64,000 bases of DNA, from NCBI GenBank assembly GCA_023091665.1, contig JALJCQ010000024.1, forward strand, positions 372,001-436,000, in the 5' to 3' direction. The notes beneath the pieces were generated by a model that was given only the letters and a program-made list of their open reading frames with translations, did no database searches and had not been told where the DNA came from. The first letter of the stretch is position 1, and every line of letters begins with the position of its first letter. The position numbers and the translations under genes were made by a program. Origin of the DNA: Pythium myriotylum (Eukaryota > Oomycota > Peronosporomycetes > Pythiales > Pythiaceae). Shown here one piece after another: positions 3,571 to 53,037 of the stretch.

Positions 3571-4164
3571 TCAGCACGAGAACGGCATCGGCTCGCCGCC
3601 ATAGTAGATGAGTGCGTCGGGGTGGGCAGGGAACTCTTCAAAAATACAGTCGTCTTGGGCGACAGTCATGAGCGACGCCGGTGGCGAAACACAAGCCCCC
3701 ATGTACGGCTCAGGCTCGGTAGTCATTGAGTGGCCGACGAGATGTGCGTGGACGAGCTCCTTCAGTTCTTGGATCCCTTTGGACGCGGCGTCAACTTGCT
3801 GCTGAATGCCATCCACGACGCCCTGCAGTTGGGCCACTTGTTGGTGGCGCATGGCCTTCTTCTTGGCCGCAGCGCTGCTCCCGCCGGAGCCCGACGCCGC
3901 GCTCTTGCTCTTGGGCTTCTCGGGCATCGTTTTCTTCATCGGCGACTCCATGTTCTCGATCTTGACCATGCCAGTGGCCACCGCGACCTCGTAGCCGCGC
4001 TTGGTCTCCCGTCGCAGAGACTTGGCGTCGGCTCCCACAGGCGACAGGCGTTCCATCGATGCGTCAGCAGAGAAGGGAATTAGCGAATGCGTGGTGGTGG
4101 AAATGGCGCGCCGATTGACGGGTGCCTCTCGGTGCCGGTTCGTCTGGAAGTTCGCAAGTGACAT
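3571..4164 (-). CDS. Family member A: short basic/coiled-coil protein
   Basis: 197 aa, single exon, ATG at 4164. Residues ~75-107 are a Lys/Ala/Ser basic patch. Residues 109-141 form one amphipathic coiled coil with core positions L113, V117, I120, V124, A127, I131, L134 and V138, followed by an acidic/aromatic tail. The same register, the same alanine core position and the same E-L-[RK] close are found in genes B (24515-24865), C (30757-31299), D (32257-32673) and E (52516-53037). Upstream on the coding strand, 60-145 bp from the ATG, lie two CCGACC-repeat elements. No known domain is recognised. By size and layout it could be a nuclear dimerising factor, but that is inference. Confidence 0.7.
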   Translation of the reverse strand: MSLANFQTNRHREAPVNRRAISTTTHSLIPFSADASMERLSPVGADAKSLRRETKRGYEVAVATGMVKIENMESPMKKTMPEKPKSKSAASGSGGSSAAAKKKAMRHQQVAQLQGVVDGIQQQVDAASKGIQELKELVHAHLVGHSMTTEPEPYMGACVSPPASLMTVAQDDCIFEEFPAHPDALIYYGGEPMPFSC

Positions 4165-5153
4165 GTTCCCCCAGCCTGTGCGCCGCCGTCATCATCTCCA
4201 TCGACCACGGTGGAGTTCGAGAGCCTTGTCGGTCGGTCGCGCTCTTAAGACTTCTTGTACTTGATATTTGTATAAATCTCGATGGAGCCATGTGGTGGTC
4301 GGTCGTTGGAAACCGTGGAAGATGAGGTTTTTCGAGCCGACCGTAGTAAAACCTTATTTGACGTGTCTTGACACGTCGGACGCATCCTGCTCGCGGCGGC
4401 CTGATCGGCTCGAACGATTGGCCTCTCTCTCGTGGCTTGCTCTGTGTTTGCCTGTTCCACTTCCCCGTCGGAGGTCGGATAGAAGCGGCTCTGGACATCA
4501 AAGAAACCAGAGCGGAAGTCGGTCGCTGGGCCTCGGCTCTTCGCAGCCAGTCACCAACCGCTTCAACCACACAAGGGACCGTCGTGCGATCGACCTTGTG
4601 TCGCATACAGCACCCCCATGGTCTCCCGATTTCCCAGTCCGACCGGTAAGTAAGGTACCCTACGGCCGAGTACCTGAGGTGCATCCCCTCGCTCCACGCC
4701 CGAAAGATTATGACCTCGTCGCGTCCGCGCACCCAGCGGGTGTGCCACTTCCGTCACCCTGCGTGTTGTGAGCTCTTCGCGAGTCCCACGCAACCATCTG
4801 CGTGTTTCGTGATCATGAGATATCGAAGCTTTGTCAGATTTGCCTGCGATTGGTTTAAATCCAAATCCGATCCATCGATTGGCTGAAATAGCGCGGGATG
4901 CCACTTCAACTGCAACGAGGAGCTAATCCTGGCCTGCTCGCCTTACTTACCGCTCACGAACACAATTGAGACCCCTCATCTCCATGATCGAGCTATTAAA
5001 GTATGACGATGCGACAGCCACGCTTAGCACTGAACGTAGCTTCTGACGCTCTGCCGTCCGATTGATGCCGGCTCCAGGTCCCCTTCCTCCGCCGACTCTT
5101 CGCCGGGATCAATCAAGCACATCTGGTATACATGCATAGCTCGGTGTCTCCCT
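4165..5153. other. Divergent intergenic region, family gene A / kinesin
   Basis: 989 bp between two divergent start codons. Apart from the CCGACC elements near gene A I see no gene. Open frames here (for example 4268-4771 and 4563-4904) overlap each other on both strands and look like chance frames in G+C-rich DNA. Confidence 0.45.
4228..4305 (-). promoter_or_regulatory. CCGACC-repeat promoter elements of family gene A
   Basis: The plus strand reads GTCGGTCGGTCGC at 4228-4240 and GGTCGGTCG at 4297-4305, i.e. CGACCGACC on the coding strand of gene A, 64-141 bp upstream of its ATG. Between them lies ACTTGATATTTGTATA (4258-4273), close to the A/T half-element fused to the repeat upstream of gene B. 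Function is inferred only from recurrence. Confidence 0.55.
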
Positions 5154-7130
5154 ATGGCCGCAGAAGACACTGACGTGCGTGATCCCTTTTCTTCTGGTTC
5201 AGCGGTAGGACAGCTTGGTGGCCGACGAGTCCGAACACCCGACCCGTCTCCTACACCAAGGGATACAATCCAGACAAGCCGTCGCTGCCCTGTTGGGGGC
5301 CCTTCGGCTACGAACTATGAACCCTCTGCGGGGAATGTTCGTGTTGTCGTGCGCTGTCGCCCCATGAATGCGACCGAGAAGGCTCGAGGCGATTCGCATT
5401 GCTTCCGTTTCGTACACAATGAGTCACATGAAATGCAAGTCGTTTCGTCTACTGGTCATGGGCGCGAACTTGTGCGCAGTTTTCAATTCGACTTCTGCGC
5501 GAGTGAGGACCTGTCACAGGGGAATTTTTTCCGCTCTTGTGGGGTGATTCCACTTCTTGAATCCGTCGCGGATGGCTACCTCGCCACTGTCTTCGCGTAC
5601 GGCCAAACAGGCTCAGGCAAAACATACAGTATGTCTGGTATCGAGGAGGTTTTGGCCATGGCACGAAAGAGATCTACAGACGTAAAACCGCAACGAGGTC
5701 TCAATGAAGTTGAGTTCTCAGATGGGATAGTCCCTCGGGCACTCAAATATTTGTACACCCTTTTTGAGCGTGCTCCGAAAGAAGTCAAGTTTGTTGTGCG
5801 TGCGTCTTACTGCGAAATCTACAATGAGCAGGTCTTTGATCTGCTCAATCCTGCGTCTGGCTCGCTTCATGTGCGATGGAATGAGCGTAGCGGATTCTAT
5901 GTGCAAAATTTGCTGGTGGTTCAGTGTGACACGCTCGATGATCTCATGGCAGTCGTCCATGAAGGACACCGAAACAGACGCGTTGGAACCCATGACATGA
6001 ACAAAGATTCAAGCCGTAGTCACTCCATTATGACGATCCATGTAGATCGAGAGACAACCGACGTAAACGACGGTCATGTCGTGACGAAATTCGGGAAAGT
6101 CTCATTTGTCGATCTCGCTGGGAGCGAGCGCCTGAAAGAAACCAAGTCGTCCAACACGGAAGAGACAAGCAACATCAACAAGAGCTTGCTGACGTTGGGC
6201 AAAGTCATTTCAGCTTTGGCGTCAAAAGACAGCGCTAACTTCATTCCGTACAGAGACAGCAAGCTCACCAAACTTTTAATGGACTCTTTGGGCGGGAGTG
6301 CGCTGGCGCTCATGATTGCGTGTGTGTCTCCATCCTCTGCCTCGCTAGAGGATTCTCTCAGCACGCTGAACTACGCAACACGAGCGAAGAATATTCAAAA
6401 CAAACCCACAGTTCAGGTTGATCCCATGGAATTTGCGCTCAGCAACTTGCGGAAGGAGAACCACACATTACGGGCTGAAAACGAGGCACTCCGAATGAGG
6501 CTTCGGTCACTGACGGCTGGAGTGAAGGGGAGCGGACAAGCGAATAATTTAACACACATACAAGACGAATCTGGGCGTCTGGGTCTGGGTACCAGTTCAA
6601 CGACTGCGAGACTGCTTCCACCGCTGCTGACCGAGTCGTCCCAGTTCTTACCGACTATTCAGTCCAAAGAGCGCCGCTCAGGGACAGCAGCCTCGACCTC
6701 TTCTCAGTTCAACGGCAGTCCAACAGCACGAGTGCATGGCGTTGATGCGTTCCGGAACCAACTTGCGTCTCTTCAAGAAGAAAACGACAAGCTTCTGCGC
6801 CACGCAACTCAAGCTGATCAGAAGCTTCGACAACTCCAAGAGGAGAACGAGTCTTTGCACAGCAAGCTGGCGCAACTGCAGCCCAAGAATCCAACGTCGC
6901 CAACGACAAAGACGTCCCCGGCCAAGAGTGGTCGACGCGTCGCCGGCGGCGAAGACCCCCAAGCAGCCGTCCAACAGCTCAAAGCGCAAGTGCAACAGCT
7001 GCAGCAACGGGAGCAGGAGCTCATGCAGGCGCTGGTACGTATCTCTCAATGCGGCGATGGTTGTCTGCCGACGAGCTCACATGCTCTCTGCCTCCAGGCA
7101 CGACGGAGTCGCGGTAGTCGCGAGAGCTGA
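5154..7130 (+). CDS. Kinesin motor protein, KIF12-like
   Basis: The motor domain runs from about residue 60 to 430. It carries the P-loop G-Q-T-G-S-G-K-T, switch I N-K-D-S-S-R-S-H-S and switch II D-L-A-G-S-E, all intact, so it should be an active microtubule ATPase. The stretch reading VRWNERSGFYVQNL before switch I resembles the KIF12 group (kinesin-12 related). A coiled coil and a polar tail follow the motor. The last exon is probably split: GTACGT at 7035 and CTCCAG ending at 7097 bound a 63-bp in-frame intron. With it removed the tail is ...ELMQAL-ARRSRGSRES, 637 aa; unspliced it is 658 aa. ATG at 5154. The gene lies between axonemal genes, but the motor alone does not prove a flagellar role. 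Confidence 0.9.
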   Translation: MAAEDTDVRDPFSSGSAVGQLGGRRVRTPDPSPTPRDTIQTSRRCPVGGPSATNYEPSAGNVRVVVRCRPMNATEKARGDSHCFRFVHNESHEMQVVSSTGHGRELVRSFQFDFCASEDLSQGNFFRSCGVIPLLESVADGYLATVFAYGQTGSGKTYSMSGIEEVLAMARKRSTDVKPQRGLNEVEFSDGIVPRALKYLYTLFERAPKEVKFVVRASYCEIYNEQVFDLLNPASGSLHVRWNERSGFYVQNLLVVQCDTLDDLMAVVHEGHRNRRVGTHDMNKDSSRSHSIMTIHVDRETTDVNDGHVVTKFGKVSFVDLAGSERLKETKSSNTEETSNINKSLLTLGKVISALASKDSANFIPYRDSKLTKLLMDSLGGSALALMIACVSPSSASLEDSLSTLNYATRAKNIQNKPTVQVDPMEFALSNLRKENHTLRAENEALRMRLRSLTAGVKGSGQANNLTHIQDESGRLGLGTSSTTARLLPPLLTESSQFLPTIQSKERRSGTAASTSSQFNGSPTARVHGVDAFRNQLASLQEENDKLLRHATQADQKLRQLQEENESLHSKLAQLQPKNPTSPTTKTSPAKSGRRVAGGEDPQAAVQQLKAQVQQLQQREQELMQALVRISQCGDGCLPTSSHALCLQARRSRGSRES

Positions 7131-7270
7131 CGAGCTCGCCAGCGGGTCCGTCGCCTCGTTTGTTGCTGTTGTCCTTGTCGTCGTCAAGCGAGTTCGTTCT
7201 CGCAACCTTCGCGCAACATCCGTTCCGCTGAGGTTTTTCCCGTGGAGCCGATTTGGGCGCGCATCTTTCC

Positions 7271-10200
7271 ATGACCACAGGAACCGCGGAAATGGACGCG
7301 GCGGCGGCGGCCTCTCGCGGGCTCTCGGGCGCCGTCAAGAAGAAGAACATTCTGGCGTTCAAGCGCATGCTGGCGGACGACGACGACAGCAGCGACGACG
7401 AGCCGCCCAAGTTCGAGCCGAAGGCGCCCGAGCCCGAAACCGAGACGCCCGCGAAGAAGGCGCCCAAGGCCGCCAAGGACAAGGACGTCAAGGTGCGCAG
7501 CGAGCGGCTCCAGCTGCGCGCCGCCATCATCGAGTCGACCACGGGGAAGAGCGACGCGAAGAAACCCTCGACGCCGCGCAAGCGCCAGCGCGCGAGCAGC
7601 GAGTCGCCCGAGCCGGAGAAGAAGGAGCGCGCCAAGGACAAGTCGGCGCCGAAGCGAGTGCGACTGACGCGCAAGGACTCGCGCGAGACGCTCAAGAAGA
7701 AGAGACAAGACGAGAAAGCACACGTCGAGACCGACCGCGAAGAGAAAGAGACAGCGGTCGCCGCCCAGCAGGACACCAACCAAGTGACAGCCCCTCCGCG
7801 TCAGGAAGCGGAAGAGACTGGGGCCCAGCGTGGAGAACAAGCGTCGCGCGAACATGCGGATGCTGCCGCGATTGCTAGCGTACGACTAGAGGCAGACATC
7901 GTACCCAAGGATACGTCGACACTAGCGAAGCGACGCGACGCAAATGCCAAGAAGACAGTCGTGGGACCCCTAAAGGAGAAGGAGCGTACCAAGCGTCAAT
8001 CAAAAGATGATCAGAAGGAGAAGGAGCCAAAAGCGGTTCGGGACGAAAAAGACACCCCAGCGCCCGCCAAGCGACGGTCTCGCGCCATTTCGGAGGATGA
8101 CGTAGGGAATGAACCGACATCTCCCGCCTCTGAATTAGAGAAAGTGGCTCGGGCTACGAACGGAGAGGATAAGAAACGAAAACGTCTGAAGCGACCGCTC
8201 TCAGAGGCAACAGCCTCTGAGAACGGATCTCATGACAGGAAGCAAACAAGTAACGAGACTGCACCGAAGCGGAAGCCAAGCAAACGACTCTCCCCGACAG
8301 AGCGCCGAGACAAGACATCTGGTATTCAGCGCGATATTCAGATGAATGATTTACGACGTGCTAAGACGACAGGCAAAGTGCGACGTGGTGAAAATAACGA
8401 AAAGGCGACAAAATCTGACTCGCTAGATGATTTTCTGAAGAAAGAGAAGAAGTCGAAAGCTGGACTCGGTGATGGTATCAAAGTGCAGTCAAAGAAACCT
8501 AGTCGTGGATCAGGCAGCACATCTCTAGACGACTATATGAAACAACACAAGAAAGCTCACGAGTCACGAAATGTCCCTGGCGACGATCAGAGTAAGACTC
8601 TCAACGACGAAACGGATCATGCGGAGGGAGGTGGGATGACTAGCCCTCATAGCCCCCATGAGACTACAGTCGATATAGATTCCAAAGCGACCTCACAAGA
8701 AGGTTTGGATGTCTCTGAAGGAGAAAGCTTTGAAGATCTCGCGAAGCGTGAGGGGTCTTCAGAACACACAAGAAACGACGCCGAGGTCAGTAGCGCCACT
8801 GCTCGCAAGACCACGGAGGAGGGAGAAGAAGTTGAAGAAGAAGATGGTGCTGTGTCTGACCACGAGAATGGATCGAAAGCTGACGCATCACTGAAGGGTA
8901 GTGATGAGGCTTCTAAGGAAGAGCCAGCTGCTGATCCCTTGTCTTTTGTGATTCCGAAGAAGCGTGTCGTGGCTGAGAATCTGGGTCAGCAGTCAGCCAA
9001 GAAGGAGGCTCTACCCGGTGAAAAACCGGCGCCACTGCAACCTCGGTTAGAAGGGACTATCGCACCGATTCCTGTGCCATCTCCGTCCCCAGTCTTCAGT
9101 GTTGACATGAGCTTCACACCAGCCAACGAGACAGTTACGAAGAAACCCCGCAAGAAAAACGTCGTTCCGCCGAAATTGATGCCTTTGACTCAGCGGGAGA
9201 AGGACTTCATGAGACTTGCAAAGAAGACCAACTCACTCCTAAAGGCCGCGACAGTTTCCGGAATGCACAGTTCCAGTGTTCAAGTAACCAAGTTGTCGGC
9301 GTTTGGTTGTACAAGCGATCGTTATGGTGTTCTTCTCGAGTCTGGGAGCACCTATTCTGAACCAACCACTCGAATGGCGTGTCCGACTCGAAAGAAGATG
9401 CAGGATGGAAATCATACACCAGATTACTTCGGAGTCGCGATGAAGGTACCTCCCTGTGCCGTGAGCAACGAATCAACCGTCTCGGAAGACGTCAAGAACG
9501 TGGAATCCAAAGTACCTTGCTATGAGACGCTCGACTTCGATAGGCCTGAGGATCGCGCTTGGTACCAGAAACGGATGTACGGTACACCATTCGTGCCACA
9601 GCTTTTGCGTGAGCGAATCACGCTCGTCATGCGCAATGCGCGATATGTGCGAAAGTCTGCAGGGCTCCAGTTCAATATGCAGCGCGATAAAGAAGAGTAC
9701 GAGACACAGCTCGCAAATCGATACAAGATGAACAGTACAACGCCGCGATGCGACATACTGTACAAGAACTGGCAGCTGCTTTCAAACGGAAGAACTAGTT
9801 TCGTATTTCTTCACTACATGAATCGGGAAGATGCCTTGCTTGCTCGAGCCCGCTTCAGAGACGATGACGGTCAGCCCTTAATAATCAAGGGTGAATCTCG
9901 AGCGAACGAACTAGCTGCGAACGGTAATACTCGAGCTGGGATCTCCCCCGGCTTATCCCCACCCCCGCAAGGGTCGCCACAACCAAGGCGTCGTTCGCGA
10001 TCGGGTTCGAATAGCCGCTCACCATCGAGACGACTTGATCAGCGAGGACGTGGAGGAAGGGATCGACTTCCACTCCAACGTCAAGCCGAGCGTGGTCCAC
10101 GGCCACCGCGCGATCGCAGCAGAGACCGTGGAGGTCGTCGACCGTCTTTCAATGGTCCAGAGCACCGTAATGGCGGTTACTATGGTCCTCGTTCGCCATG

Positions 10201-10819
10201 TCGTCGTCCAACTCGGTCTCGTTCACGATCGCCAACCCAATTGCGGCATGATCTGAGTCAACACGATCGCGTAAGTCAACCCAGCGTTGTGGGGTCCAGC
10301 CAACCAAGTGACAGTCAAGATGATAAGTCGACAATCACAACGAGTCAGCCGTCACAAGAATCACATTTTCCAAGCCAAGCAAGCAATCAAGAGCATTCAT
10401 TGGAGGAAGGTGAGAGTTTAAGCCAAGAGCCTCTGGATCAAGATTCACAGCACCCCGGGGGTGAACATCAACGTACCCGAGGGCGTTCTCGTTCTCGATC
10501 TCGGCCGAGATTGCACGACGAAAGGCACCCACCATTGCCCCCACATTCAATGCGAAGGGGGTCGGAGGATCGTTCCTTTCATAGAGATAGACGCAACAGT
10601 GGCGAATTTTTCGGTCGTGCCCGGGAAGGAAGACGGGGTCGATCTCCACCCCCACCACCAGGTCGTGATAGCCGCGAGCATGGCCGCTATAACGACCACT
10701 ACCACCAGCAACAACATCACGACGATTGGCAACCGCACCCTCGTGACTTTGACCGGTACAGTCACCACGATGCTGACCCTCATCGACGCTCCTATCAAGA
10801 CGGACGGCGTTTCCATTAG
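7271..10819 (+). CDS. Large RS-rich nuclear protein with two UAP56-binding-like motifs
   Basis: 1182 aa from ATG 7271; the frame is open upstream but without an ATG. The N-terminal half is almost purely Lys/Glu/Arg/Ser, highly charged and predicted disordered. Two short repeats, S-L-D-D-F-L (residues 384-389) and S-L-D-D-Y-M (418-423), resemble the UAP56-binding motif of mRNA-export adaptors such as ALYREF and CHTOP. A more globular block (about residues 740-880) contains W-Y-Q-K-R-M-Y-G-T-P-F and a pattern that I do not recognise as a named domain. The C-terminal ~300 residues are an RS/RG domain with many S-R and R-G dipeptides. A role in mRNA processing or export is inferred. It starts 140 bp after the kinesin stop on the same strand. 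Confidence 0.8.
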   Translation: MTTGTAEMDAAAAASRGLSGAVKKKNILAFKRMLADDDDSSDDEPPKFEPKAPEPETETPAKKAPKAAKDKDVKVRSERLQLRAAIIESTTGKSDAKKPSTPRKRQRASSESPEPEKKERAKDKSAPKRVRLTRKDSRETLKKKRQDEKAHVETDREEKETAVAAQQDTNQVTAPPRQEAEETGAQRGEQASREHADAAAIASVRLEADIVPKDTSTLAKRRDANAKKTVVGPLKEKERTKRQSKDDQKEKEPKAVRDEKDTPAPAKRRSRAISEDDVGNEPTSPASELEKVARATNGEDKKRKRLKRPLSEATASENGSHDRKQTSNETAPKRKPSKRLSPTERRDKTSGIQRDIQMNDLRRAKTTGKVRRGENNEKATKSDSLDDFLKKEKKSKAGLGDGIKVQSKKPSRGSGSTSLDDYMKQHKKAHESRNVPGDDQSKTLNDETDHAEGGGMTSPHSPHETTVDIDSKATSQEGLDVSEGESFEDLAKREGSSEHTRNDAEVSSATARKTTEEGEEVEEEDGAVSDHENGSKADASLKGSDEASKEEPAADPLSFVIPKKRVVAENLGQQSAKKEALPGEKPAPLQPRLEGTIAPIPVPSPSPVFSVDMSFTPANETVTKKPRKKNVVPPKLMPLTQREKDFMRLAKKTNSLLKAATVSGMHSSSVQVTKLSAFGCTSDRYGVLLESGSTYSEPTTRMACPTRKKMQDGNHTPDYFGVAMKVPPCAVSNESTVSEDVKNVESKVPCYETLDFDRPEDRAWYQKRMYGTPFVPQLLRERITLVMRNARYVRKSAGLQFNMQRDKEEYETQLANRYKMNSTTPRCDILYKNWQLLSNGRTSFVFLHYMNREDALLARARFRDDDGQPLIIKGESRANELAANGNTRAGISPGLSPPPQGSPQPRRRSRSGSNSRSPSRRLDQRGRGGRDRLPLQRQAERGPRPPRDRSRDRGGRRPSFNGPEHRNGGYYGPRSPCRRPTRSRSRSPTQLRHDLSQHDRVSQPSVVGSSQPSDSQDDKSTITTSQPSQESHFPSQASNQEHSLEEGESLSQEPLDQDSQHPGGEHQRTRGRSRSRSRPRLHDERHPPLPPHSMRRGSEDRSFHRDRRNSGEFFGRAREGRRGRSPPPPPGRDSREHGRYNDHYHQQQHHDDWQPHPRDFDRYSHHDADPHRRSYQDGRRFH

Positions 10820-10888
10820 ATGATCGTGTTATTTATTTATGCAGGAATGAGTGTCGAGCGAAATACTAGGGAAACCAGGTTCGATGGA

Positions 10889-13261
10889 TTATGAAGAAGC
10901 TTTGAGCTCCAGATCGCGTCCCTTTTTGAACAGGAACTCAGCCAAGTAGTCAATTGGGTCGTCCGGCTGCACCTTTACTACCTCCAGCATGCCTTCGGTC
11001 AGCGCTGGTAGCACTGTGTCCATCAGGTACGTTCGCAGAGGCTTAGCTCGCGCCTCTAATAGTTCGGCTTCTTCTCTCTGAATGATCTCGAGTCGCGCTC
11101 GATCCGCCTCGAGTCGAGTATGGTGCATCGCCTGGTCGCGCTCGTCCTGCTCGATTTCCTGCTGCTTGAGTCGCACCTCGTCTTCCTGCTTCTTGCGTGC
11201 GTATTCACGCTCCATCTGCCTGATTTCATCTCGCGTCGGGTGGAAGTTGTGGGGTTTTCCTCCACCTTGTTCCATGTAGCTTTTCACCGGAGACTGGAAG
11301 ACGTCGCCATCCGTAAAGCTCGCTTCACTCTCCAAGTGAAGCTCCAGTACTTCGACCCCATCGCCAATTGCCGTCGACTTTTGCTCGAAGAACAAGATGA
11401 GTGCTTCCGATTCAGCTGCGAACAGCTGATGTCGTGCGGAAAACAAGGCCTGTGTGTTGCCTGTCGCAATCGCAATTTCTTCGCTCAGCAATTGAGCTCG
11501 CTTCTCCAACAGGTCTTGGGGGGCAAGAAGAACAATGACGCGGTTTGGAAACTGAATCTGCCTTCTTGGACGGAGTCTGTCCAGAATCGCCTTTGACCTT
11601 GATTTGGAGAGGGTACCCGCCTTGCCATCTGCATTATCGTCACCGTCGCCGCTACCAACGTCATCTACTGCGTTTTCGGACTCTGCCTTTGCCTCAACGT
11701 TGGCTTCCGCTGAATCGTCACCGCCATCGCCACCATCACCATATCCAATCAACTCAAAGATCTTGCCAGCTTGAGCTGCAGATACTGGTAGACCATCCAG
11801 TACGTATCCCTGATTTCGGCAAACCGCTTGTGTCAGCTTCCATCGCAGCAAAGAAATAACTGTCGTCTCCGGTAGTTCTTCCACACTCGCAGGCTTACTA
11901 TCGTCACCGGTGTCTCGCCACGCTTTAAGTTCAGCCCGAACCTGCAGTAGCAGAGGATCGTCATTCTCAGCTTGCACTTCATTCCCTGTCGTATCTTCTT
12001 CCGGTTTCGCCTCAGCAGCTGCGTCGACGTGCTGCTGATGGGTGGTAGTGTCCACCGACAATACCTCCTCTGCAATGGACTGAAGGGTGAGATGCGGCAG
12101 GTAGTATTCCTTTGCAATCCGCTGGCTCAAAAATGTCTTCCCTACACGAGGAGGTCCCAGTATGACGGTCTTGAGCGGGCGAAGATCCATCGAAGCGATA
12201 TAATCGTCCACGTAGAATGCCAAGTTGCTCAGTAGCCCTGTCGAGATGTGCTTGTATTCCTCGACTGGCACGATTGAAGTTATTGCGGTTGATTCACTGG
12301 TAGAATCGAATGTCAAGTGAAGCTGCAGCGCCGCCACGAGGCCGCCTCCACTATCCACAACCTCTTCGTCATCGCTTAGAAGGAGCGTCTCGACTTCATC
12401 CTCTGTGAGCTGGTCACGAATTCTGCCATTGCCGAGGAGAACGCTAAGACCGATGCACAAATCCCTCAACGTCGTGCTCTGGCTGGCCCTATCGATGGCG
12501 ACAATGTAATTCTTCGGGACTGACGAGGTAACGGCGATGCGGCTGACGAGCAACGCCAGATCGTAGACGCTCACCATGGGCAGTAAGTTCTCGCCTCGCG
12601 TAGCTGATGAACTCCCTGGCAATGCCGGCACAAGCAATTCTCGGTCGGGATACATCCACGCGTTGCGGAAAAGTGGGGACAAGCTGCTTTGGGCTCCTCC
12701 ATATATCAGCCCTGAGGCCACAACGAATGTCTCCAACACGTCGGCTTTGTTAGCGCTCAGTATCTGGGTCTCGGCGGTTTTGAGTTCAACGTACTTTTTG
12801 GCGGGCTTGCGTGTCTTGAAGTCGTCTTCGCTGTGGCCACGCTGTTCTTTCTGGTTAGCAAACGGAGCGTTCTTGCTCCACGTGAGCACGCTTGAGATGG
12901 CGACAAAGCGCCTCACAGTCTCCGATGCAGCATCGTCCTCATCCCCAGCCGATGCAGCGGCCTTCTCGAACAGCTTGAGCAGGTCCATTGCAGTTTTGAT
13001 GTCTTGCGCAAATCTCGTGGCGACAACGACCTCGGCTTTTTGGACCAGTTTCGAGATTGATACTTTGTCGCTGATCGTTGCGACAGGATCTTTCACGGCC
13101 TCTTCACGATCACTTGATGGGTGGACAAGGAGCTTGCGTTTCGCTGTCTGAACAAGTGATTTCGATGGGACCGAGCCCAACACTTCGTGGTCAGCATCCT
13201 GTAAGTGACGCGCGATGGCGGAACCAAGCGTAGTGTGTAAGTCGGTGACGAAGACCCGCAT
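10889..13261 (-). CDS. AK7: Adenylate kinase 7 (axonemal)
   Basis: 790 aa, single exon, ATG at 13261. Three modules occur in the order seen in AK7. An N-terminal NAD(P)-epimerase-like Rossmann region starts M-R-V-F-V-T-D-L. An adenylate kinase domain has the P-loop G-P-P-R-V-G-K-T near residue 367 and acidic insertions. A Dpy-30-type dimerisation motif lies in the last ~45 residues (Y-L-M-D-T-V-L-P-A-L-T-E-G-M, then DPIDYLAEFLF). AK7 interconverts adenine nucleotides (2 ADP to ATP + AMP) in motile cilia. A long Glu/Arg/Gln helix precedes the Dpy-30 motif. The gene is head-to-head with PACRG, another axonemal gene, with 368 bp between start codons. Confidence 0.9.
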   Translation of the reverse strand: MRVFVTDLHTTLGSAIARHLQDADHEVLGSVPSKSLVQTAKRKLLVHPSSDREEAVKDPVATISDKVSISKLVQKAEVVVATRFAQDIKTAMDLLKLFEKAAASAGDEDDAASETVRRFVAISSVLTWSKNAPFANQKEQRGHSEDDFKTRKPAKKYVELKTAETQILSANKADVLETFVVASGLIYGGAQSSLSPLFRNAWMYPDRELLVPALPGSSSATRGENLLPMVSVYDLALLVSRIAVTSSVPKNYIVAIDRASQSTTLRDLCIGLSVLLGNGRIRDQLTEDEVETLLLSDDEEVVDSGGGLVAALQLHLTFDSTSESTAITSIVPVEEYKHISTGLLSNLAFYVDDYIASMDLRPLKTVILGPPRVGKTFLSQRIAKEYYLPHLTLQSIAEEVLSVDTTTHQQHVDAAAEAKPEEDTTGNEVQAENDDPLLLQVRAELKAWRDTGDDSKPASVEELPETTVISLLRWKLTQAVCRNQGYVLDGLPVSAAQAGKIFELIGYGDGGDGGDDSAEANVEAKAESENAVDDVGSGDGDDNADGKAGTLSKSRSKAILDRLRPRRQIQFPNRVIVLLAPQDLLEKRAQLLSEEIAIATGNTQALFSARHQLFAAESEALILFFEQKSTAIGDGVEVLELHLESEASFTDGDVFQSPVKSYMEQGGGKPHNFHPTRDEIRQMEREYARKKQEDEVRLKQQEIEQDERDQAMHHTRLEADRARLEIIQREEAELLEARAKPLRTYLMDTVLPALTEGMLEVVKVQPDDPIDYLAEFLFKKGRDLELKASS

Positions 13262-13629
13262 CGTGGAGGTGGGAGACTAGCAGTGGCTCTGGGAAGCTGA
13301 AGCGTCGTTTGGGCGTCGGGACTTCAGTCAGTTGCAGCTTGAAGATAACGGCGGCGCTGGTTCAAAATAGCTTGCGCACAAATTCGACGTCACGCTGGTC
13401 AATGCGTGGAGAAGGGGTTCTATCTTTGAGCTCTTTGAAAGTTGCCCTAGCTTCTCCCGAGGCCCGCCAAACATATTCAACGTGCATGTGGGGATGCCGT
13501 GGGAAAGCGGTTCCATGGTCGCAGGCTCACCAAGCAACAAGCGCAATGGTGCGTTTGGTCTCCGCTTTTCATCGGAGATCGAAGTGTCTGATCATGCTTC
13601 ACTGTTCAGTTGGCGTCTTGGAAGTCAAA
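13262..13629. promoter_or_regulatory. Bidirectional promoter between AK7 and PACRG, with an X-box-like site
   Basis: 368 bp separate the two start codons. GTTGCCCTAGCTTC at 13441-13454 matches the RFX X-box left half (GTTGCC) and spacing, but only part of the right half (AGCTTC against RGCAAC). X-boxes drive ciliary genes in animals; whether oomycetes use them is unknown to me. The frame of PACRG stays open through part of this region, so some of it could be coding. Confidence 0.4.
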
Positions 13630-14535
13630 ATGAAGCAAAGACTCGAGCAAGACCACGAAGCTGTGGCAATAGGATCCCTTCGCCACTCGCCGTCAAGGTC
13701 CGATAACAACCACCACCATGTCAAGCGAAGCAAACGTGTCCATAAGCTGCCTCAGCTGCAGCACTCGCGGTCTGAACCCGACGCCCGGCCACCGTCTTTC
13801 GAAGTAGCGCGGTCTCAAGTCATGGACGGACTGGACCTTCCATCTCCCACGCGCTCGCTTATCGAAAAACATGTCGAACATGCCAAGCACGAAGACGAAG
13901 CACGGAAGAACGCGCTGCCACCAGTTGCTGGGGCTTTTAAGAAGCGTGCGGCCCCACGCTCGCTGTTCCCACAAGCATACCAACGCGGGGAATTGCCTAT
14001 CATGGTCGAGAGCAAAGCCGGGGGTCAAACGCTGCGATGGACACAAGACATCAAGACGCTCGACTTCGCAAAGTTGCTTCCCCTCTTTCTCAGTGGAATG
14101 CGGGAGACGAGTTTCCCGTTCAGCTTCATGGCCCGCGAAGGCGCGTTCCAGTTGCTCCAATTTGGTCACCAGTACCCAGAGCGCGTGCTCGACTGCCTTC
14201 CGCAGACGATTCCGGCCGTTCGGTCAATCCTCGATCTGAGAGAGGCGCAGCACATGCGTGATGCACTTCTAGTGATTCAGAGGCTCGCGCGGATCGACGG
14301 TGTCGGGCTAGCGCTCGTGCCGTATTATCGACAGTTGCTACCGACGCTTAATCTATTTAAAGCTAAGCGACGAAACATGGGCGATTCAATCGATTTCCAG
14401 CAGCACAGCGCAAAGGACGTGGGGGAGATGATCGTTGAGACACTTGAGTTGCTTGAAGCTGTGGGCGGCCACGACGCCTATGTAAATATCAAGTACATGG
14501 TGCCGACGTACGAGGGCGCACAGATGCACAAGTAA
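13630..14535 (+). CDS. PACRG: PACRG, parkin co-regulated gene protein (axonemal inner-junction protein)
   Basis: 301 aa from ATG 13630; a further in-frame ATG at 13546 is possible. After a variable basic N-terminus of ~120 residues the protein matches PACRG. It has an F-x-x-A-Y-x-R-G-E-L-P-I segment, a central helical block with L-P-L-F-L-S-G-M-R-E, the phrase LVPYYRQLLPTLNLFK, and the end GGHDAYVNIKYMVPTYE. PACRG binds the inner junction of ciliary doublet microtubules. It is divergent from AK7 and converges on ATG5, with only 32 bp between the stops. The start is the least certain part. Confidence 0.93.
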   Translation: MKQRLEQDHEAVAIGSLRHSPSRSDNNHHHVKRSKRVHKLPQLQHSRSEPDARPPSFEVARSQVMDGLDLPSPTRSLIEKHVEHAKHEDEARKNALPPVAGAFKKRAAPRSLFPQAYQRGELPIMVESKAGGQTLRWTQDIKTLDFAKLLPLFLSGMRETSFPFSFMAREGAFQLLQFGHQYPERVLDCLPQTIPAVRSILDLREAQHMRDALLVIQRLARIDGVGLALVPYYRQLLPTLNLFKAKRRNMGDSIDFQQHSAKDVGEMIVETLELLEAVGGHDAYVNIKYMVPTYEGAQMHK

Positions 14536-15686: not shown

Positions 15687-17543
15687 CTACGTCACGAAAG
15701 AGCCTGCACGTGTCTTGCTGGCCTTGGACGGCGGCACCAGAGAGGGCGGAAGCTCATCCGGAATCGTTTCGCCTTCCTTGGCCTTGCCGCAGAGGTACAT
15801 GGCGACTGCAAACTCCTCGGCGTCGAGGAACCCGTCCTTGTCCACGTCGGAGATGTCCCAGATCGCCTTGAGCGTCTCCTGCGGACAGCCTGTGGCTTGA
15901 AGCGGGGCCATGCACACGGCACCAGCTGCTCTCCCTGTTGCATCGACGCGTAGGGCCTTGAAGACGGCATCATACTCAGCCTTGTAGGGAGTAACCTCCC
16001 ATCCGTACTGGTCGGCCGGGATCGCAAACGGATTCGTCATCACCGTATCCGAACTTTCAGCCTTGCTGCCTTCTCGCTTCGGCAGCAGTGCCATGAGCTT
16101 TGGGATGTCTTTGGAGAGAAGCTCGTCAATCTCCTGGATGGCCTTGATGTTGAGTCCAGTAAACTTGTATAGCTTGCGCTCACTGCATTTCCTCGCAAAC
16201 TCGTCAATGTTGGGGAAGTCACCCGGTGGCAAATGGAACTTGCGTTGCACTTCTCGAAAGATCTCGGCCATGTTATCAATCAGTTCGCGCTGCTTCTTCT
16301 CCTTGCCCATCATTGCCGGCATCTTATCTTTTAAGTGGCCGATCAGGTACGAGTGTACTTTGGCGAGTCGTGCGCGCTTGACGAACTCGTTGATCTTGCG
16401 CACAGCCGCGTTCTGGGGCAGGTTGCGCAGCTCCGTCATGAGATCTTTCTCCTCGGCTTCGAACAGTGCTGCATTATCCGTGTGGAGCAGTGGCTGGTCC
16501 CAGAACGAACCGATGAACACGCGCATGACCTCGGGCGTCTTGAGCACCTTGCCCATAGACCACATTAACGCACCGTAGCTGCAGAACACACATATCGTCA
16601 GTATGCTACGAGTAGAGATAAACAATCATGAGGGCCGGTCGTGATCAGATGCCGTCTGCTACACGTGGTGAGCATCAGGCCGCTTGGCTGGTTTCATGAG
16701 AGAACTGAGTTCTCTTCAGAACCCCTGCGCATCGGTTCCTTTGTGCATTTCGTCACTTCACGTCCAGCCCTCTTTAACAAGATTGTTCGTGATGCAAACG
16801 TACACTCGCATGAGCCGTTGCTGGTCAATCTGGTCGGCCTTGTTCAGCACGCAGCGGATCTTGTCGTCGTGGCCTTTGAGCACCTCGATGACGCGCTGGA
16901 ATTCGTCAGAGATGTCGAGCTTGTGGGCATCGAAGAGAAGCAAGATCATGTCCGAGCGCTCGGCGAACCAGCGCGCTACCTGCACAAAGTCGTAGCCGCG
17001 TGCGATGCGTTGCTTTTCGCCCGAGAGAATGCCCGGCGTGTCGATGACCGTGATGTTCTCCAGCAGTTTGCACGGCATCTGCGCGGCCTCGAACTTGTTC
17101 AGAAAGGCCGTGCCGAACATTGAGAGGCCGCCGTAAGGCAGGTCAGGCGAGACCGCGACGGCGTTGCCTGGCACGACGCGCTCTTCGTCGCCGTACATGA
17201 CGGCGATGAAGCGGTCGGTGGTCGGCTCAGGGCCGATGCGCTGGCCGGGGAACGACTTGCCCAGCAGGTACTCGATGAAGCTGGTCTTGCCGACCGAGTA
17301 CTGGCCGATCATGAGGATCTGCGGCTTGGCGTCGAAGTCGGCGTCGCTCCAGAGCGGCGAGTGGAAGTCATCGAAGCCGTACTTCTTCTCGAGCGGCCGC
17401 AGCTTGGCGGCGTAGAGCCGCTTGAGTCCATCGATGACGGCGCGGCTCCGCGCGGCGATGTCATTGCCCTCGCCCGAGAGTAGCGCGGCCGACGTGCTCG
17501 TGCTCGCGCTGCGTGGCGATGGATCCGCGGCTGTTGGCATCAT
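15687..17543 (-). CDS. EHD: EH-domain-containing dynamin-like ATPase (EHD)
   Basis: Two exons: 17543-16804 and 16578-15687. The 225-bp intron is bounded by GTACGT at 16803 and CTGCAG ending at 16579. The join gives 543 aa, the usual EHD length. Residues 80-88 are the P-loop G-Q-Y-S-V-G-K-T-S. The GTPase-like fold continues with V-I-D-T-P-G and N-K-A-D, then the helical region (YGALMWSMGKVL, EVMRVFIGSFWD). The C-terminal EH domain is intact, with an EF-hand loop D-V-D-K-D-G-F-L-D-A-E-E-F. EHD proteins tubulate membranes and act in endocytic recycling. The N-terminal ~25 Ser/Ala residues are a lineage-specific extension. The intron is much longer than the others in this window. Confidence 0.94.
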
Positions 17544-24514: not shown

Positions 24515-24865
24515 CTATCGGCTCTCTGCGTATTGCTTCAGCAGTTCTCGCAGCTCGTTAATGCGCGTAGCGGCCAGGCTCACCGTCGCCTGCATTTCGT
24601 TGACAGCGCCTTGCATCAGCTTGACTTCAAGGTTCAGGTCTTCTGACGCAAGAATTGGCAAGTCGACGCAGTCTGCTTCGACCTCCGCAAAGGGCTCGCT
24701 GGTGCTCACTGAGTCCTCGAGGTCCGAAGCGACGTCGACTGGCGAAGACGGCTTGAAGGCGATTTCATCCTCCAGCGCGATTTGCTTTGCGCGCTTCGTC
24801 ATGGTCTCGACGCTGAGAGCCTCGTTGCGGCTGCGCTTCTTTGGAGAGGTCTGGACTTGGCACAT
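24515..24865 (-). CDS. Family member B: short basic/coiled-coil protein
   Basis: 116 aa, single exon, ATG at 24865; the shortest member. Residues 8-30 are basic (P-K-K-R-S-R-N and T-K-R-A-K). An acidic centre follows, then one coiled coil at residues 80-113 with core V81, M84, V88, M91, V95, A98, I102, L105 and L109, ending six residues before the stop. The basic clusters look like a bipartite nuclear localisation signal. Upstream are four full or strong partial CCGACC elements (25041-25315). The minimal size shows what the family conserves: a basic patch, an acidic spacer and the coiled coil. Function unknown. Confidence 0.72.
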   Translation of the reverse strand: MCQVQTSPKKRSRNEALSVETMTKRAKQIALEDEIAFKPSSPVDVASDLEDSVSTSEPFAEVEADCVDLPILASEDLNLEVKLMQGAVNEMQATVSLAATRINELRELLKQYAESR

Positions 24866-25040: not shown

Positions 25041-25329
25041 GGTCGGTCGGTCGGTGGAGCCGCCGTCTCTTGGAGCGAACACGACGGAAGTTCAGCGGTC
25101 GGTCGCTTTCTCTGACTAATTTAAACCTCGAATTTGTATTCAACAGTACCTACCCACGAGTTCGGAGGGTGGACGGTCGGAAATCCCAAAACGGACAGGA
25201 ATTAACGGTCGGTCGGTATCTTGATTTTTGTATGCAATTTTTAGCCGCCGGTGCTAAGGAGCGGCAACCACCAGCGGTTGGGACATTGCAACAGACTTCG
25301 TGGTCGGTCGGTATGCTAAATTTTGTATG
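25041..25329 (-). promoter_or_regulatory. CCGACC-repeat promoter array of family gene B
   Basis: Plus-strand copies are GGTCGGTCGGTCGGT (25041-25055), GGTCGGTCGC (25097-25106), a half copy GACGGTCGG (25172-25180), GGTCGGTCGGTATC (25207-25220) and GGTCGGTCGGTATG (25302-25315). The last two run straight into A/T halves of the same shape: TTGATTTTTGTATG (25221-25234) and CTAAATTTTGTATG (25316-25329). All read CCGACC on the coding strand, 176-450 bp upstream of the ATG. Confidence 0.65.
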
Positions 25330-30293: not shown

Positions 30294-30541
30294 CGACCGA
30301 CCATACACAACCGATTGCATAATCTTGATTTTCATACGAATTCCAAGTGGTTCACTTGATACGAACACGACCGTCCAGCTTGTGGAGTGACCAGCACTCC
30401 ACTTCAACAGTGGTTTGCTGTTCAATTCGTAATCTACCCTAACCGCAATGGTATCGGATTGCGCTTTCGACCGTCCTAACCAGATCTAGGAACTTCATAT
30501 ATTATAAATAAATGATTTGAAAATTTTTAGCCGACCGACCG
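30294..30541 (+). promoter_or_regulatory. CCGACC-repeat promoter elements of family gene C
   Basis: CGACCGACCAT at 30294-30304 and CCGACCGACCG at 30531-30541 lie 216-463 bp upstream of the gene C ATG, in the same orientation relative to the gene as in the other four family members. The second follows an A/T-rich half (AAATTTTTAG, 30521-30530). A separate AATCTTGATTTTCATACG (30321-30338) closely matches the A/T half-element of gene B, here in the opposite orientation relative to the gene. Confidence 0.6.
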
Positions 30542-30756: not shown

Positions 30757-31299
30757 ATGGCCTCCACTGCCGGTCCCCTTGTGCCTCCCATGTCCCCTGT
30801 CGTCAAGCGATCCACTCGCAAGCGACAGAGACCGTCGTTCTTTGCTGAGGAGATCGAGGCGGCGGCGGTCGCATCGTCGTCGTCGACCAAGAAACATAGC
30901 AGCTCAGGTGGATCGCGGAGCAGCTCTCGCCACAAACACAGCACAACGCCACAGCCAACTCAACAGCATTCCCACCACCATCACCACACACGACGCGGCG
31001 GCCGCAGCCAGCTCTCGGAACTGCACGACACCGTCTCTGATCTCCGGGCCCAGATCGAGTCGGCGACTGTACAAATGCAAGAGCTGCGATCACTAGTAAC
31101 ACTACTGGCAGATCTCTATCGCGGAGAGCCCAGCTCAGCGACAGTTGACGAGCCCAAGCTTTTTTCTGCGACCTCATCTGAACAAGACTCACATGAGGAG
31201 CAAGATGTGTTCTCGTCAACTTCATCAGAGCACGATATGTACGAGGGCGAGGACGAGGAAGATTTGTTTTCAACGCCTCTGTCCCCGCTTCTGCCGTGA
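30757..31299 (+). CDS. Family member C: short basic/coiled-coil protein
   Basis: 180 aa from ATG 30757. Residues 16-24 are basic (V-K-R-S-T-R-K-R-Q-R) and probably a nuclear signal. A Ser/His-rich linker with a histidine run (H71-H77) leads to the coiled coil at 85-120, core L86, L89, V93, L96, I100, A103, M107, L110 and V114. The C-terminal 60 residues are acidic and Ser-rich. The coiled coil aligns without gaps to members A, B, D and E. The gene converges on member D, 957 bp apart tail to tail. Function unknown. Confidence 0.72.
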   Translation: MASTAGPLVPPMSPVVKRSTRKRQRPSFFAEEIEAAAVASSSSTKKHSSSGGSRSSSRHKHSTTPQPTQQHSHHHHHTRRGGRSQLSELHDTVSDLRAQIESATVQMQELRSLVTLLADLYRGEPSSATVDEPKLFSATSSEQDSHEEQDVFSSTSSEHDMYEGEDEEDLFSTPLSPLLP

Positions 31300-32256
31300 C
31301 CCAAAAATCAAATTGTGATTGGCGATATCTTGTTCTTTTGAGTATTGTTTCAGTAGTCTTTACCATAGCAGGTGTAGTGACTCCTCATGCATCCCGTTCG
31401 GAGAACTACAATAATACAAGTTGGGACGAGGTCAACATGGTGGTGGACAATGCTGCATCAACTTCATGGTCCTCCGTGCTAAGTCGTGTCTCGTGTGAGA
31501 CATCGAACACGACCTCTCTCTCTCTCACTCTCCCACCACCCCGACTCAGCGCCTCCCCTTCGTTGGCAAAGGCTCTCTCGCCCTAGATCGACTGAAATGA
31601 TACTGTACCATGCACAGGAAAGCATCTCCACCGGCCGTACATGCTCACATGTCCTTATGTTCATCATATCGAAGAGGGTGTTCAGACTCGCAGCGTTCGC
31701 AACCTGCATGGTGCTCCTGTAGGTACGTGAGGGATCCAGTGGAGCTGCTCGTCACGTTAGTTAAAGGCCGGTCGTTCTCGTAGACACGATAATCCTTGAT
31801 ACTGAATGGAATAGTCAACGATGACCCGAGTTTGACGGTCGGTCGGAATTTGGAGTCTTTCCAGCCAAAAAAGGTGAGGCGGGTCGCTTCTTTGGAACCC
31901 AGTGAGGGTCTCCTCAAAAAGCCTTCCATGGGGATTGCAAACGCTCCAACATTGAGCGCCTTGGGTTCGACATGCCGTGATCATCAGAGAAGTCCGACCC
32001 TATGATTCCACAATGCATAATTGGATGCAAGGTCGGATATTATGCTTCGGACAGCGAATCGAAACAATGGACATGTGGAAGCAGACTAGATGTGAGTGTA
32101 ACACAGTCCAGGGAACTGGACTCGAATTGACCAAAGTGAATCTTGGTGTATTACCCAGTTACTACATAAATAAAGTGAACAGCCTCTCAAGAGGTTTCAA
32201 GGAACGAGCAATCGCGCGGAAGCGGAGAATTGGGACACGGGTAGACGATGTCGGTC
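31300..32256. other. Intergenic region between convergent family genes C and D
   Basis: 957 bp between two stops. It holds a (CT)n tract near 31513-31530 and an orphan CCGACC element at 31837. Frames up to ~95 codons exist but none has recognisable content. Confidence 0.45.
31837..31846 (-). promoter_or_regulatory. Orphan CCGACC-repeat element
   Basis: GGTCGGTCGG on the plus strand is followed by AATTTGGAGTCTTT. It is oriented to serve a minus-strand gene to its left, but none is there. It may be the remnant of a promoter from a lost family copy. Confidence 0.45.
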
Positions 32257-32673
32257 TCAGTTGACGTTCCGCTCCTGCTGGGCCATGAAGATGGCAATCA
32301 GATCTCGCAGCTCGCTGATCTTCTCGGCAGCCTTTGAGACGTTCTTCTCCATCGATCGCACCGACTCTTTTAGGTTTGCGACCTCTTCGCTGAGCTGCTC
32401 TTCGGATGGCTCCGCCAACTCTACGCGATGGCGCTTGAGCATGTCCGGAGTCTCCTCGATTTCGACATGCTCATCCAGCGAGTCGAGATCCGAGTTCTCA
32501 AAGTCGACCTCATCGGCCAACATTGTGTCTTCTCGTCGGATGGCGACACTGGTAGTCGTCGTCGTTGCGACTGAGCGCCGACGCTTACGGTTCGTGGACT
32601 TGTCCTCTGGACAAATCGGCTCCATGGCGTCCTGCACATTCGGGTTACTGGGGGCGAGCGAGCGGAGGGGCAT
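32257..32673 (-). CDS. Family member D: short basic/coiled-coil protein
   Basis: 138 aa from ATG 32673. The frame continues upstream to 32931 but would then read through CCGACC elements, so the inner ATG is preferred. Residues 25-33 are basic (S-T-N-R-K-R-R-R-S), followed by an acidic region (D-E-V-D-F-E-N-S-D) and a second basic cluster (L-K-R-H-R). The coiled coil is at 97-130, core V98, L101, V105, M108, V112, A115, I119, L122 and I126. The protein stops 12 residues after the aligned block. Its promoter region also lies in front of the divergent amino-acid permease gene (33359). Function unknown. Confidence 0.72.
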   Translation of the reverse strand: MPLRSLAPSNPNVQDAMEPICPEDKSTNRKRRRSVATTTTTSVAIRREDTMLADEVDFENSDLDSLDEHVEIEETPDMLKRHRVELAEPSEEQLSEEVANLKESVRSMEKNVSKAAEKISELRDLIAIFMAQQERNVN

Positions 32674-32875: not shown

Positions 32876-33196
32876 TCGGTCGGACGGTCGGTCAAGCGCT
32901 CCACCTTGAGTCTGTGACCGTGCTTCTCCATTTTCCCAGGAATTTTCGCACAGCACCTCGTTATAAAGACTCACGCAGTAGTTAACCACAGGCGGATGTT
33001 TCGTTCTCCTTTGTTCGTCGTGCTTCACAAAAGTGGCACATCGAACGGTCGGTCGCATTCAAGCCGTATTGACATCCCGCTTTTACTATCCATCCATACT
33101 GTCGAGGGAGACTACGTTTGGACGGTCGGGAGAGTGTCAGATGAATCCACGAGCTGACCAGCCTCGCGGTCGGTCGGGATATAAATTTCAGTATAG
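32876..33196 (-). promoter_or_regulatory. CCGACC-repeat promoter array of family gene D
   Basis: Plus-strand copies are TCGGTCGGACGGTCGGTC (32876-32893), GGTCGGTCGC (33047-33056), a half copy GACGGTCGGG (33121-33130) and GGTCGGTCGGGAT (33168-33180). The last is fused to the A/T half ATAAATTTCAGTATAG (33181-33196). They lie 203-510 bp upstream of the gene D ATG and also 163-483 bp upstream of the permease gene. Confidence 0.62.
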
Positions 33197-46092: not shown

Positions 46093-46108
46093 CGGCGCGT
46101 GGGGCAGC

Positions 46109-49234: not shown

Positions 49235-49340
49235 TAGCCCTCTGGCTCACTGGTTCCCCAGTAATACAACCGCCCCGTCCTAACTGAAGGGTTCTTTTGT
49301 TCATCTTTCATTTTAGGCGACTGTTGAAGGTTACCGTTGG

Positions 49341-52300: not shown

Positions 52301-52437
52301 AGTGGGAGCAGTTCCTGCGTGCGTGGCGACAGCAGCACAAGTCGGCGATCGTACAGGCCGTGCTCGGCGCAGGGCTCGCTATCGACCTGAACAAGAACAA
52401 GAGAGAGCGGTACCGCATGCTCGTGCTCCAAAAGTGA
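49341..52437 (+). CDS. IQ/WW/trypsin-like/FN3 multidomain protein (three exons)
   Basis: Exons 49341-50613, 50682-51626 and 51695-52437 (introns 68 bp each, GTACGT and GTATGT donors) give 986 aa in frame. Order: IQ motif (V-L-Q-R-A-A-R-V-Y), WW domain (Y-D-P-I-E-K-Q-Y-F-Y-V-N ... T-T-W-E-R-P), second IQ (I-Q-R-G-T-R-A-F), a second WW-like segment lacking its second Trp (T-S-S-E-K-P), and a trypsin-like fold. In that fold T-A-H-V-V and G-A-G-S-A-V-F are where the catalytic His and Ser should be, and A-V-D is the likely Asp. Then FN3 (to P-A-L-R-F-R-T) and a helical/ARM-like region with coiled coils. Peptidase activity is likely but unproven. The combination seems unusual. Confidence 0.78.
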
Positions 52438-52515
52438 TTCGATCCCACTGGTGGCATTACACTATCATGCGCGATCTACGAAACTCTACATGATCGGTCG
52501 TTCGATTCTACTACT

Positions 52516-53037
52516 TCACGAGCAGAGCATGTCGATGGAGACACGCGCGGGCGACGCCTTGGACGTTCGGAGAGGCGCGAGTTGCGCGCGTGGGCGCAGC
52601 TGGCTCGACGCGGCGACGCGCAGCAGCAGCGCGCGCAGCTCGGCGACGTCGCGTCTCGCCTGCGCGACTTGGGCATGGACCTGGTCCACGCGGACCTGGA
52701 TCTGCTTGAATGGGGACGACGACGTCTCCTCCTCCCCCTCTGCTTCATCTTCTTCCTCTTCTTCGTCAGTGACTTTGCTAACGGACGACCACGACGGCGC
52801 GATCTCTTCCCGTCGTCGTCGGGTGAGATATGGGTGGTACGAGACGCGAGGCCCCATCCGCATGACATCTTCGGCAGACTCGCCGCGTTGGCGCTTGCGG
52901 AAGACGGCGGTCGCCTTGCGGCCACTGGGCGTGGGCGAGAGCGAGAGCGAGGGCGAGGCGAAGGGCGAGCGCGGCATCGTGCGGCACGAGCGAGGCGAGA
53001 TGGCAAGTGAGTTGTCCCGGCGGATGCGCGAAGACAT
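52516..53037 (-). CDS. Family member E: short basic/coiled-coil protein
   Basis: 173 aa from ATG 53037 (ATG 52977 also possible). The frame runs further upstream, but the promoter elements lie there. Residues 40-50 are basic (R-K-A-T-A-V-F-R-K-R-Q-R) and 73-76 hold R-R-R-R. An acidic run (mostly D/E, 91-105) follows. The coiled coil at 110-143 has core I113, V117, V120, V124, A127, V131, L134 and L138, closing E-L-R-A-L-L. The tail is basic, Ala/Ser-rich. It aligns gap-free to A-D in the coiled coil. The gene converges on the multidomain protein (78 bp between stops). Function unknown. Confidence 0.7.
   Translation of the reverse strand: MSSRIRRDNSLAISPRSCRTMPRSPFASPSLSLSPTPSGRKATAVFRKRQRGESAEDVMRMGPRVSYHPYLTRRRREEIAPSWSSVSKVTDEEEEEDEAEGEEETSSSPFKQIQVRVDQVHAQVAQARRDVAELRALLLRVAASSQLRPRAQLAPLRTSKASPARVSIDMLCS

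What the first reader, a model, noticed from the sequence alone, without database searches (positions are those of the whole stretch)
3571..53037. A dispersed five-gene family of short coiled-coil proteins not recognised as a known family
Genes A (3571-4164), B (24515-24865), C (30757-31299), D (32257-32673) and E (52516-53037) encode 116-197 aa proteins with different N-termini but one coiled coil that aligns without gaps. Core positions are V/L/I-x3-V-x2-M/L/I/V-x3-V/I-x2-A-x3-I/V/M-x2-L, with Ala at the same position in all five and a closing E-L-[RK]. Each also has a basic patch or KRxR cluster before the helix. They are scattered on both strands, interleaved with unrelated housekeeping genes, so this is not a simple tandem array. 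Seen: alignment and basic patches. Inference: nuclear homo- or heterodimerising regulators, able to pair because the registers are identical.
Basis: partly seen in the sequence, partly recalled or inferred. Interest (0 to 1): 0.9.

Follow-up and report, generated by a model that had tools for sequence, protein, structure and literature searches.

The report
Coiled-coil gene family, shared upstream motif
Five small genes spread over 50 kb of what looks like an oomycete genome encode related, mostly unstructured proteins with the same coiled-coil helix, and all five carry the same one-way DNA element upstream, which suggests a jointly controlled set of proteins, possibly regulators.

Summary
All five ORFs exist (A, B, D, E on the minus strand, C on plus) and their helices align without gaps. 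With each left out in turn, a 31-column profile of the other four ranks it first among 219,703 six-frame 31-mers of the window plus 100 kb each side. An HMM supports A, B and D but not C and E. Heptad-preserving shuffles do not explain the group likeness. No Pfam family reaches its cut-off.

The strongest result was not in the finding: a strand-oriented upstream element, CGACCG[AT]CC. Of 30 copies on both strands of 264 kb, 22 lie in sense within 600 bp upstream of these five genes (2, 6, 4, 4, 6), none in antisense there, and none in the same stretch of 19 other window genes. A sixth candidate on another contig, found by helix, carries it too. This makes C and E credible members and points to common control.

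The nuclear dimerising-regulator reading is plausible, not shown. A link to the oligomerisation helix of heat shock factors was tested and stays weak. Other oomycetes could not be searched.

The parts
3571..4164 (-). gene A, 197 aa; helix core at 3748-3840
24515..24865 (-). gene B, 116 aa; helix core at 24536-24628
   Evidence: aligned with D over B residues 6-111, 31% identity, E 0.003
30757..31299 (+). gene C, 180 aa; helix core at 31009-31101
   Evidence: HMM leave-one-out not significant
32257..32673 (-). gene D, 138 aa; helix core at 32293-32385
52516..53037 (-). gene E, 173 aa; helix core at 52621-52713
   Evidence: weakest member by helix, HMM leave-one-out not significant
4231..4305 (-). 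2 copies of CGACCG[AT]CC upstream of A (4231, 4297)
25041..25310 (-). 6 copies upstream of B (25041, 25045, 25097, 25171, 25207, 25302)
30294..30540 (+). 4 copies upstream of C (30294, 30368, 30468, 30532)
32882..33176 (-). 4 copies upstream of D (32882, 33047, 33120, 33168)
53121..53478 (-). 6 copies upstream of E (53121, 53183, 53187, 53331, 53456, 53470)
24827..24841 (-). KKRSR basic cluster in B (residues 9-13)
30817..30831 (+). RKRQR basic cluster in C (residues 21-25)
32575..32589 (-). RKRRR basic cluster in D (residues 29-33)
52885..52899 (-). RKRQR basic cluster in E (residues 47-51)

Best explanation
Shown: five diverged related genes that keep one helix in the same register and a sense-oriented array of CGACCG[AT]CC elements upstream. 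Inferred: one DNA-binding factor reads the elements and switches the genes on together; the proteins enter the nucleus through their KRxR-type clusters, pair through the helix with one another or with a partner that has a compatible coil, and act as adaptors or competitors rather than as DNA binders, since no DNA-binding domain is recognised. The conserved end E-L-[RK]-x-L-[VLI] would be the partner-facing part of the helix.
For: The profile ranks all five first when left out; heptad-preserving shuffles give z 8.4 for the group; B and D are alike along most of B (E 0.003). 22 of 30 elements in 264 kb lie in sense within 600 bp upstream of the five genes, 0 in antisense there; 5 of 5 family genes against 0 of 19 other window genes carry it. 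Candidate F, found by helix A (E 0.058; reciprocal E 0.050), has the element in sense at -822/-818 and an 8-base version at -274. D and E are each predicted as a single confident helix. [RK]KRxR is in 4 of 5 family proteins, against 3 hits in 11,870 residues of 20 neighbour genes, in 2 of the 20. No Pfam family over its cut-off.
Against: C and E fail the HMM leave-one-out. Tail fits allow about 1 to 9 chance scores as high as F's in the whole genome, and F has no likeness to E, so F rests mainly on its upstream element and architecture. A has no K[KR]x[KR] cluster. Location, pairing, transcription and the element's function are untested. The element was found after looking at the upstream letters and overlapping copies are counted apart, so its binomial p (2e-43) is post hoc; the gene-level count (5 of 5 against 0 of 19, about 2e-5 by my own arithmetic) is the more cautious figure. 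The 19 genes are larger ORFs with my choice of start; one copy (35912) lies 51-59 bases inside the Arf-like ORF and would be upstream of it if its true start is a later ATG.
Confidence: 0.45

Rival explanations
1. The helix descends from the oligomerisation helix that follows the DNA-binding domain in heat shock factors (HSFs). The proteins would be HSF relatives without a DNA-binding domain that join coil-bearing HSFs and tune or poison them.
For: The genome's best HSF match (C9:1422652) has a helix-like stretch after its DNA-binding domain that scores 38.2 on the family profile, about as high as F (38.4) and the top of 25 HSFs and 18 bZIPs scanned. Its post-domain stretch finds D first among 6042 ORFs of 264 kb (E 0.012, next 11). 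By eye, many of the HSF domains end in KR or RR clusters (sequences), as the family proteins bear them before the helix.
Against: Only this one of 25 HSFs fits well; three others score 19 to 20 and the rest under 12. A heptad-preserving shuffle gives only p 0.013 for it. Genome-wide, the only other match reported for that stretch is in a 944-aa frame on C6 (E 0.0097, not examined); only two candidates were scored and no family member was among them. No HSF domain match lies in the window.
Confidence: 0.15
2. The proteins are coil-bearing scaffold or cytoskeletal adaptors, not nuclear; the basic clusters bind nucleic acid, membrane or nothing.
For: A lacks the NLS-type cluster; genes known from flagella lie around A (ODAD1, kinesin, Dpy-30, PACRG); location is untested.
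Against: [RK]KRxR clusters before the helix in 4 of 5; the Pfam matches of the neighbours of B to E are not flagellar.
Confidence: 0.2
3. The helices are unrelated coiled coils that look alike because all coiled coils do.
For: C and E are not significant by HMM leave-one-out; a bZIP zipper reaches 27.8 on the profile.
Against: All five rank first by gapless profile; heptad-preserving shuffles fail to reproduce the group score; all five share the upstream element.
Confidence: 0.03
4. The upstream elements are passive leftovers of duplication, or a short repeat, and not control sites.
For: D and E share 27 of 31 bases around one element, B and E 25 of 30 around another, so some upstream sequence may have been copied along with the genes.
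Against: All upstream matches listed span a CGACC element, with little beyond it; copy number and position vary while orientation is constant. The proteins have diverged to 16-29% identity, so passive DNA should have been lost.
Confidence: 0.12

Closest known systems
bZIP transcription factors (Pfam PF00170)
   Same: Basic residues and a coil of 4 to 5 heptads.
   Different: No N-x7-[RK] basic region before the helix and no bZIP match; the [RK]KRxR cluster lies 57 to 66 residues before the helix core in B to E.
Heat shock factors of oomycetes (PF00447)
   Same: One HSF of this genome has a similar helix. In P. infestans only 7 of 17 HSFs have a predicted coil (PMC11267843, passages read).
   Different: No HSF DNA-binding domain in the five proteins or in the window.
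MicroProteins and ID-type inhibitors (small partners that block larger factors; starts of abstracts PMC4807768 and PMC2818612 seen in the listing)
   Same: Small proteins with little besides an interaction segment.
   Different: No partner is known here and descent from a larger factor is not shown.
Heat shock factor binding protein 1 (PF06825)
   Same: Small coil-only protein (recalled).
   Different: No match of any of the five at E up to 10.

Membership tests
bZIP | Basic region with N-x7-R/K directly before the zipper (definition in PMC4046829, passages read) | tested here: not met
   0 of 5 have N-x7-[RK] in the 30 residues before the helix core
bZIP | Match to bZIP profile | tested here: not met
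   No bZIP family among matches up to E 10 for 5 of 5 proteins; none of the 22 PF00170 matches listed for the genome is on C24
HSF | HSF-type DNA-binding domain | tested here: not met
   No match in the five proteins; none of the 25 matches listed for the genome is on C24
HSF | Oligomerisation helix like that of this genome's HSFs | tested here: inconclusive
   1 of 25 HSFs scores 38.2, three 19 to 20; shuffle p 0.013; no family member among the two candidates scored genome-wide
HSBP1 | Match to PF06825 | tested here: not met
   No match in 5 of 5 at E up to 10
MicroProtein | Binds and blocks a larger protein through a shared domain | not testable with these tools
   needs binding assays
The five-gene family described here | 31-residue helix that ranks first by profile, and sense-oriented CGACCG[AT]CC upstream | tested here: met
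   5 of 5; candidate F scores 38.4 and carries the element

The most novel reading that the evidence does not exclude
A dedicated regulatory set: one activator reads oriented CGACC arrays and releases several coil-only nuclear proteins at once, which mix with one another and with the few coil-bearing heat shock factors of the cell, so that a 50-kb gene cluster sets the make-up of transcription factor oligomers in a lineage where most HSFs lack a coil.
Probability: 0.12. Interest if true: 0.8.

Novelty: new variant of a known kind. Interest (0 to 1): 0.55.

Why it matters
If true, a family defined twice over, by a protein helix and by an oriented upstream element, gives a directly testable regulon: the element predicts members, the helix predicts partners. 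If the proteins do pair with coil-bearing transcription factors, they would be a layer of control that a domain library such as Pfam does not show, because little but a coil is conserved.

Tried and rejected
Plain chance coiled coils: rejected. bZIP or HSF membership: rejected. Longer starts for D and E: rejected, no coding bias. Other genome hits of the family proteins: L028 and L031 to L033 show no family helix by eye in the plus-strand ORFs printed and were dropped; L038 to L042 were not followed up. Solved structures: only weak matches, best E 0.037, a GCN4 chimera. Prokaryote contigs with B and viral contigs with D: no relatives, as expected for a eukaryotic gene. A further family copy near the lone element at 31837: none found even with stops allowed. 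Literature: in four oomycete papers on promoters or transcription factor sites the main text holds CGACC once, in an unlike Plasmopara motif CGTCGACCCTGAYCC, and CGACC, ACCGAC, CCGAC and GTCGG not at all in the other three; their figures and supplements were not seen. A search of the paper library for three longer strings listed 30 of 363 papers, none of them by title on oomycete promoters. Searches for such a protein family or coil-only regulators in oomycetes listed 15 of 475, 10 of 213 and 8 of 32 papers, none by title on such a family. That is no proof that family or element is unpublished.

Full report
What is there. Codon bias supports each reading frame (own-frame score .072 to .258, the other five frames -0.27 to 0.06) and does not support the longer in-frame starts of D and E. 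C (.072) and E (.090) are at the low end of the 20 neighbour genes (.073 to .313), which also trained the model. The genes sit between unrelated genes: of 20 neighbour ORFs scanned, 17 have Pfam matches, among them ODAD1, kinesin, Dpy-30, PACRG, EHD, cytochrome P450, amino acid transporter, Arf-like, FYVE-GAF, PH, enolase, DUF1996, rhodanese, WW, transposase and FAN1. The genome is 58.7 Mb in 55 contigs.

Is the likeness real. The helices align gap-free with V, A, E, L and L invariant. I built a BLOSUM62 profile over 31 columns, left one gene out at a time and scored the 219,703 31-mers of ORFs of at least 60 aa in 264 kb. The left-out gene was the best non-training hit every time: A 46.8, B 46.5, C 41.8, D 43.5, E 34.0, against best outsiders of 22.8, 23.2, 27.5, 24.2 and 29.5. 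Shuffling residues only within heptad positions gives a group score of 202 with s.d. 27, against 425 observed. Other results are less kind. A local HMM finds A, B and D (5e-6, 2e-6, 6e-4) but gives C 0.78 and E 3.3, each behind two outsiders. Some single pairs (C-E p 0.16, D-E p 0.055) do not beat their shuffles. Exponential tail fits expect .03 to .13 chance scores of 34 in 264 kb, and 1 to 9 scores of 38.4 in the genome. The 31 columns were chosen after seeing the alignment.

The upstream element. Reading the 300 bases before each start showed repeats of CGAC. Counted over 264 kb and both strands, CGACCGACC occurs 23 times and CGACCG[AT]CC 30 times; 16 and 22 of these lie in sense within 600 bp upstream of the five genes, 0 in antisense there, and 0 copies of CGACCG[AT]CC in the same stretch of 19 other window genes. 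The 19 are the 20 genes less the downstream half of EHD (15687-16565); smaller window genes were not in the list, but the window holds only three copies besides the 22. Copies per gene are A 2, B 6, C 4, D 4, E 6; overlapping tandem copies are counted apart (25041/25045, 53183/53187). The other 8 are single copies: 31837, 35912 and 43709 in the window (43709 lies inside enolase, antisense) and 5 in the flanks. The binomial p of 2e-43 treats copies as independent and is post hoc; 5 of 5 genes against 0 of 19 is the safer count. All upstream matches that blastn lists span a CGACC element; the best is D with E, 31 bases at 87% (E 9e-6). An initiator of the published form YCAYTYY (PMC3599244, passages read) is found at -54 in B (and at -177) and at -73 in D, which, taken at -54 and -73, would put all their elements upstream of the start of transcription; A, C, E and F have none within 350 bp, and none of the six has the combined INR+FPR.

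A sixth candidate. Helix A finds C20:226081-226176 (E 0.058), and the reverse search returns A (E 0.050). The 254-aa open frame has RRRKR just after its first Met and the helix in the middle. It scores 38.4 on the profile. Upstream in sense lie CGACCGACCGACC (two overlapping copies, -822 and -818) and GACCGACC at -274, with no antisense GACCGACC in the 3,096-base locus. At the outside rate of 8 in about 525,000 strand-bases, the chance of one such site in 1.17 kb is about 0.02 (my arithmetic). Its likeness to E is nil (score 13, no better than shuffles). F is probable, not proven.

What it is not. No Pfam match passes a cut-off. bZIP and HSF membership fail on the DNA-binding part. The HSF lead was tested on the 25 HSF matches listed and the 18 of 22 bZIP matches over the cut-off (734 to 750 and 293 to 363 bases each, read to the first stop, introns not handled). 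One HSF scores 38.2 on the family profile, three score 19 to 20, the best bZIP 27.8. Its stretch after the DNA-binding domain finds D first among 6042 ORFs (E 0.012), but its heptad shuffle gives only p 0.013, and the only other genome match reported for it is in a 944-aa frame that I did not examine; two candidates were scored and no family member was among them. I leave this link open at about 15%. A published survey was itself surprised that only 7 of 17 P. infestans HSFs have a coil (PMC11267843, passages read), which is why coil-only partners would be interesting.

How it most likely works. D and E are each predicted as one confident helix (91-137 and 109-145) in a chain of otherwise low confidence (mean pLDDT 67.5 and 59.7). 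Core letters are V, I, L, M or F at a, with an invariant Ala in the third d layer of A to E and Leu in the fourth; 15 of 45 e and g residues are charged (my count). That would allow pairing among helices of like register. The closing E-L-[RK]-x-L-[VLI] holds three of the five invariant columns and adds a hydrophobic residue at g, so I take it as a partner-facing end (inference). KRxR clusters in 4 of 5 suggest nuclear import. With no DNA-binding part recognised, an adaptor or competitor role under common control by the CGACC array is the most economical reading. The family and the array are shown here; location, pairing, the array's function and the role are inferred.

Limits. The protein database was off, so distribution and prior naming could not be checked. 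The element has been counted in 264 kb and looked for in the fetched loci, so more members may exist.

Noticed in passing
window 848-14535: A run of genes known from flagella or cilia: ODAD1 coiled coil, a kinesin, a Dpy-30/adenylate-kinase-like protein and PACRG (the ciliary role is recalled).
   Followed up: no
window 53866-55827, minus strand: An open 653-aa transposase-like ORF (HTH_Tnp_Tc5 and DDE_1) next to the upstream side of gene E; it could be a domesticated copy.
   Followed up: no
window 15687-17543, minus strand: An EHD protein split over two ORFs, so an intron or a frame break probably lies between 16565 and 16758.
   Followed up: no
window 31837-31845, minus strand: A lone CGACCGACC between C and D with no family helix found near it, possibly the remnant of a lost copy.
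   Followed up: partly
whole genome G000: 25 HSF domain matches, several close together on C30, C20, C13 and C15; by my reading of the fetched stretches only 4 of 25 have a coil-like stretch within about 470 bases after the domain.
   Followed up: partly
window 33164-33194 (upstream of D) and 53466-53496 (upstream of E), minus strand: A longer composite of an AT-rich box followed by CCCGACCGACCGCGA, 27 of 31 bases shared, with weaker versions before B and C.
   Followed up: partly
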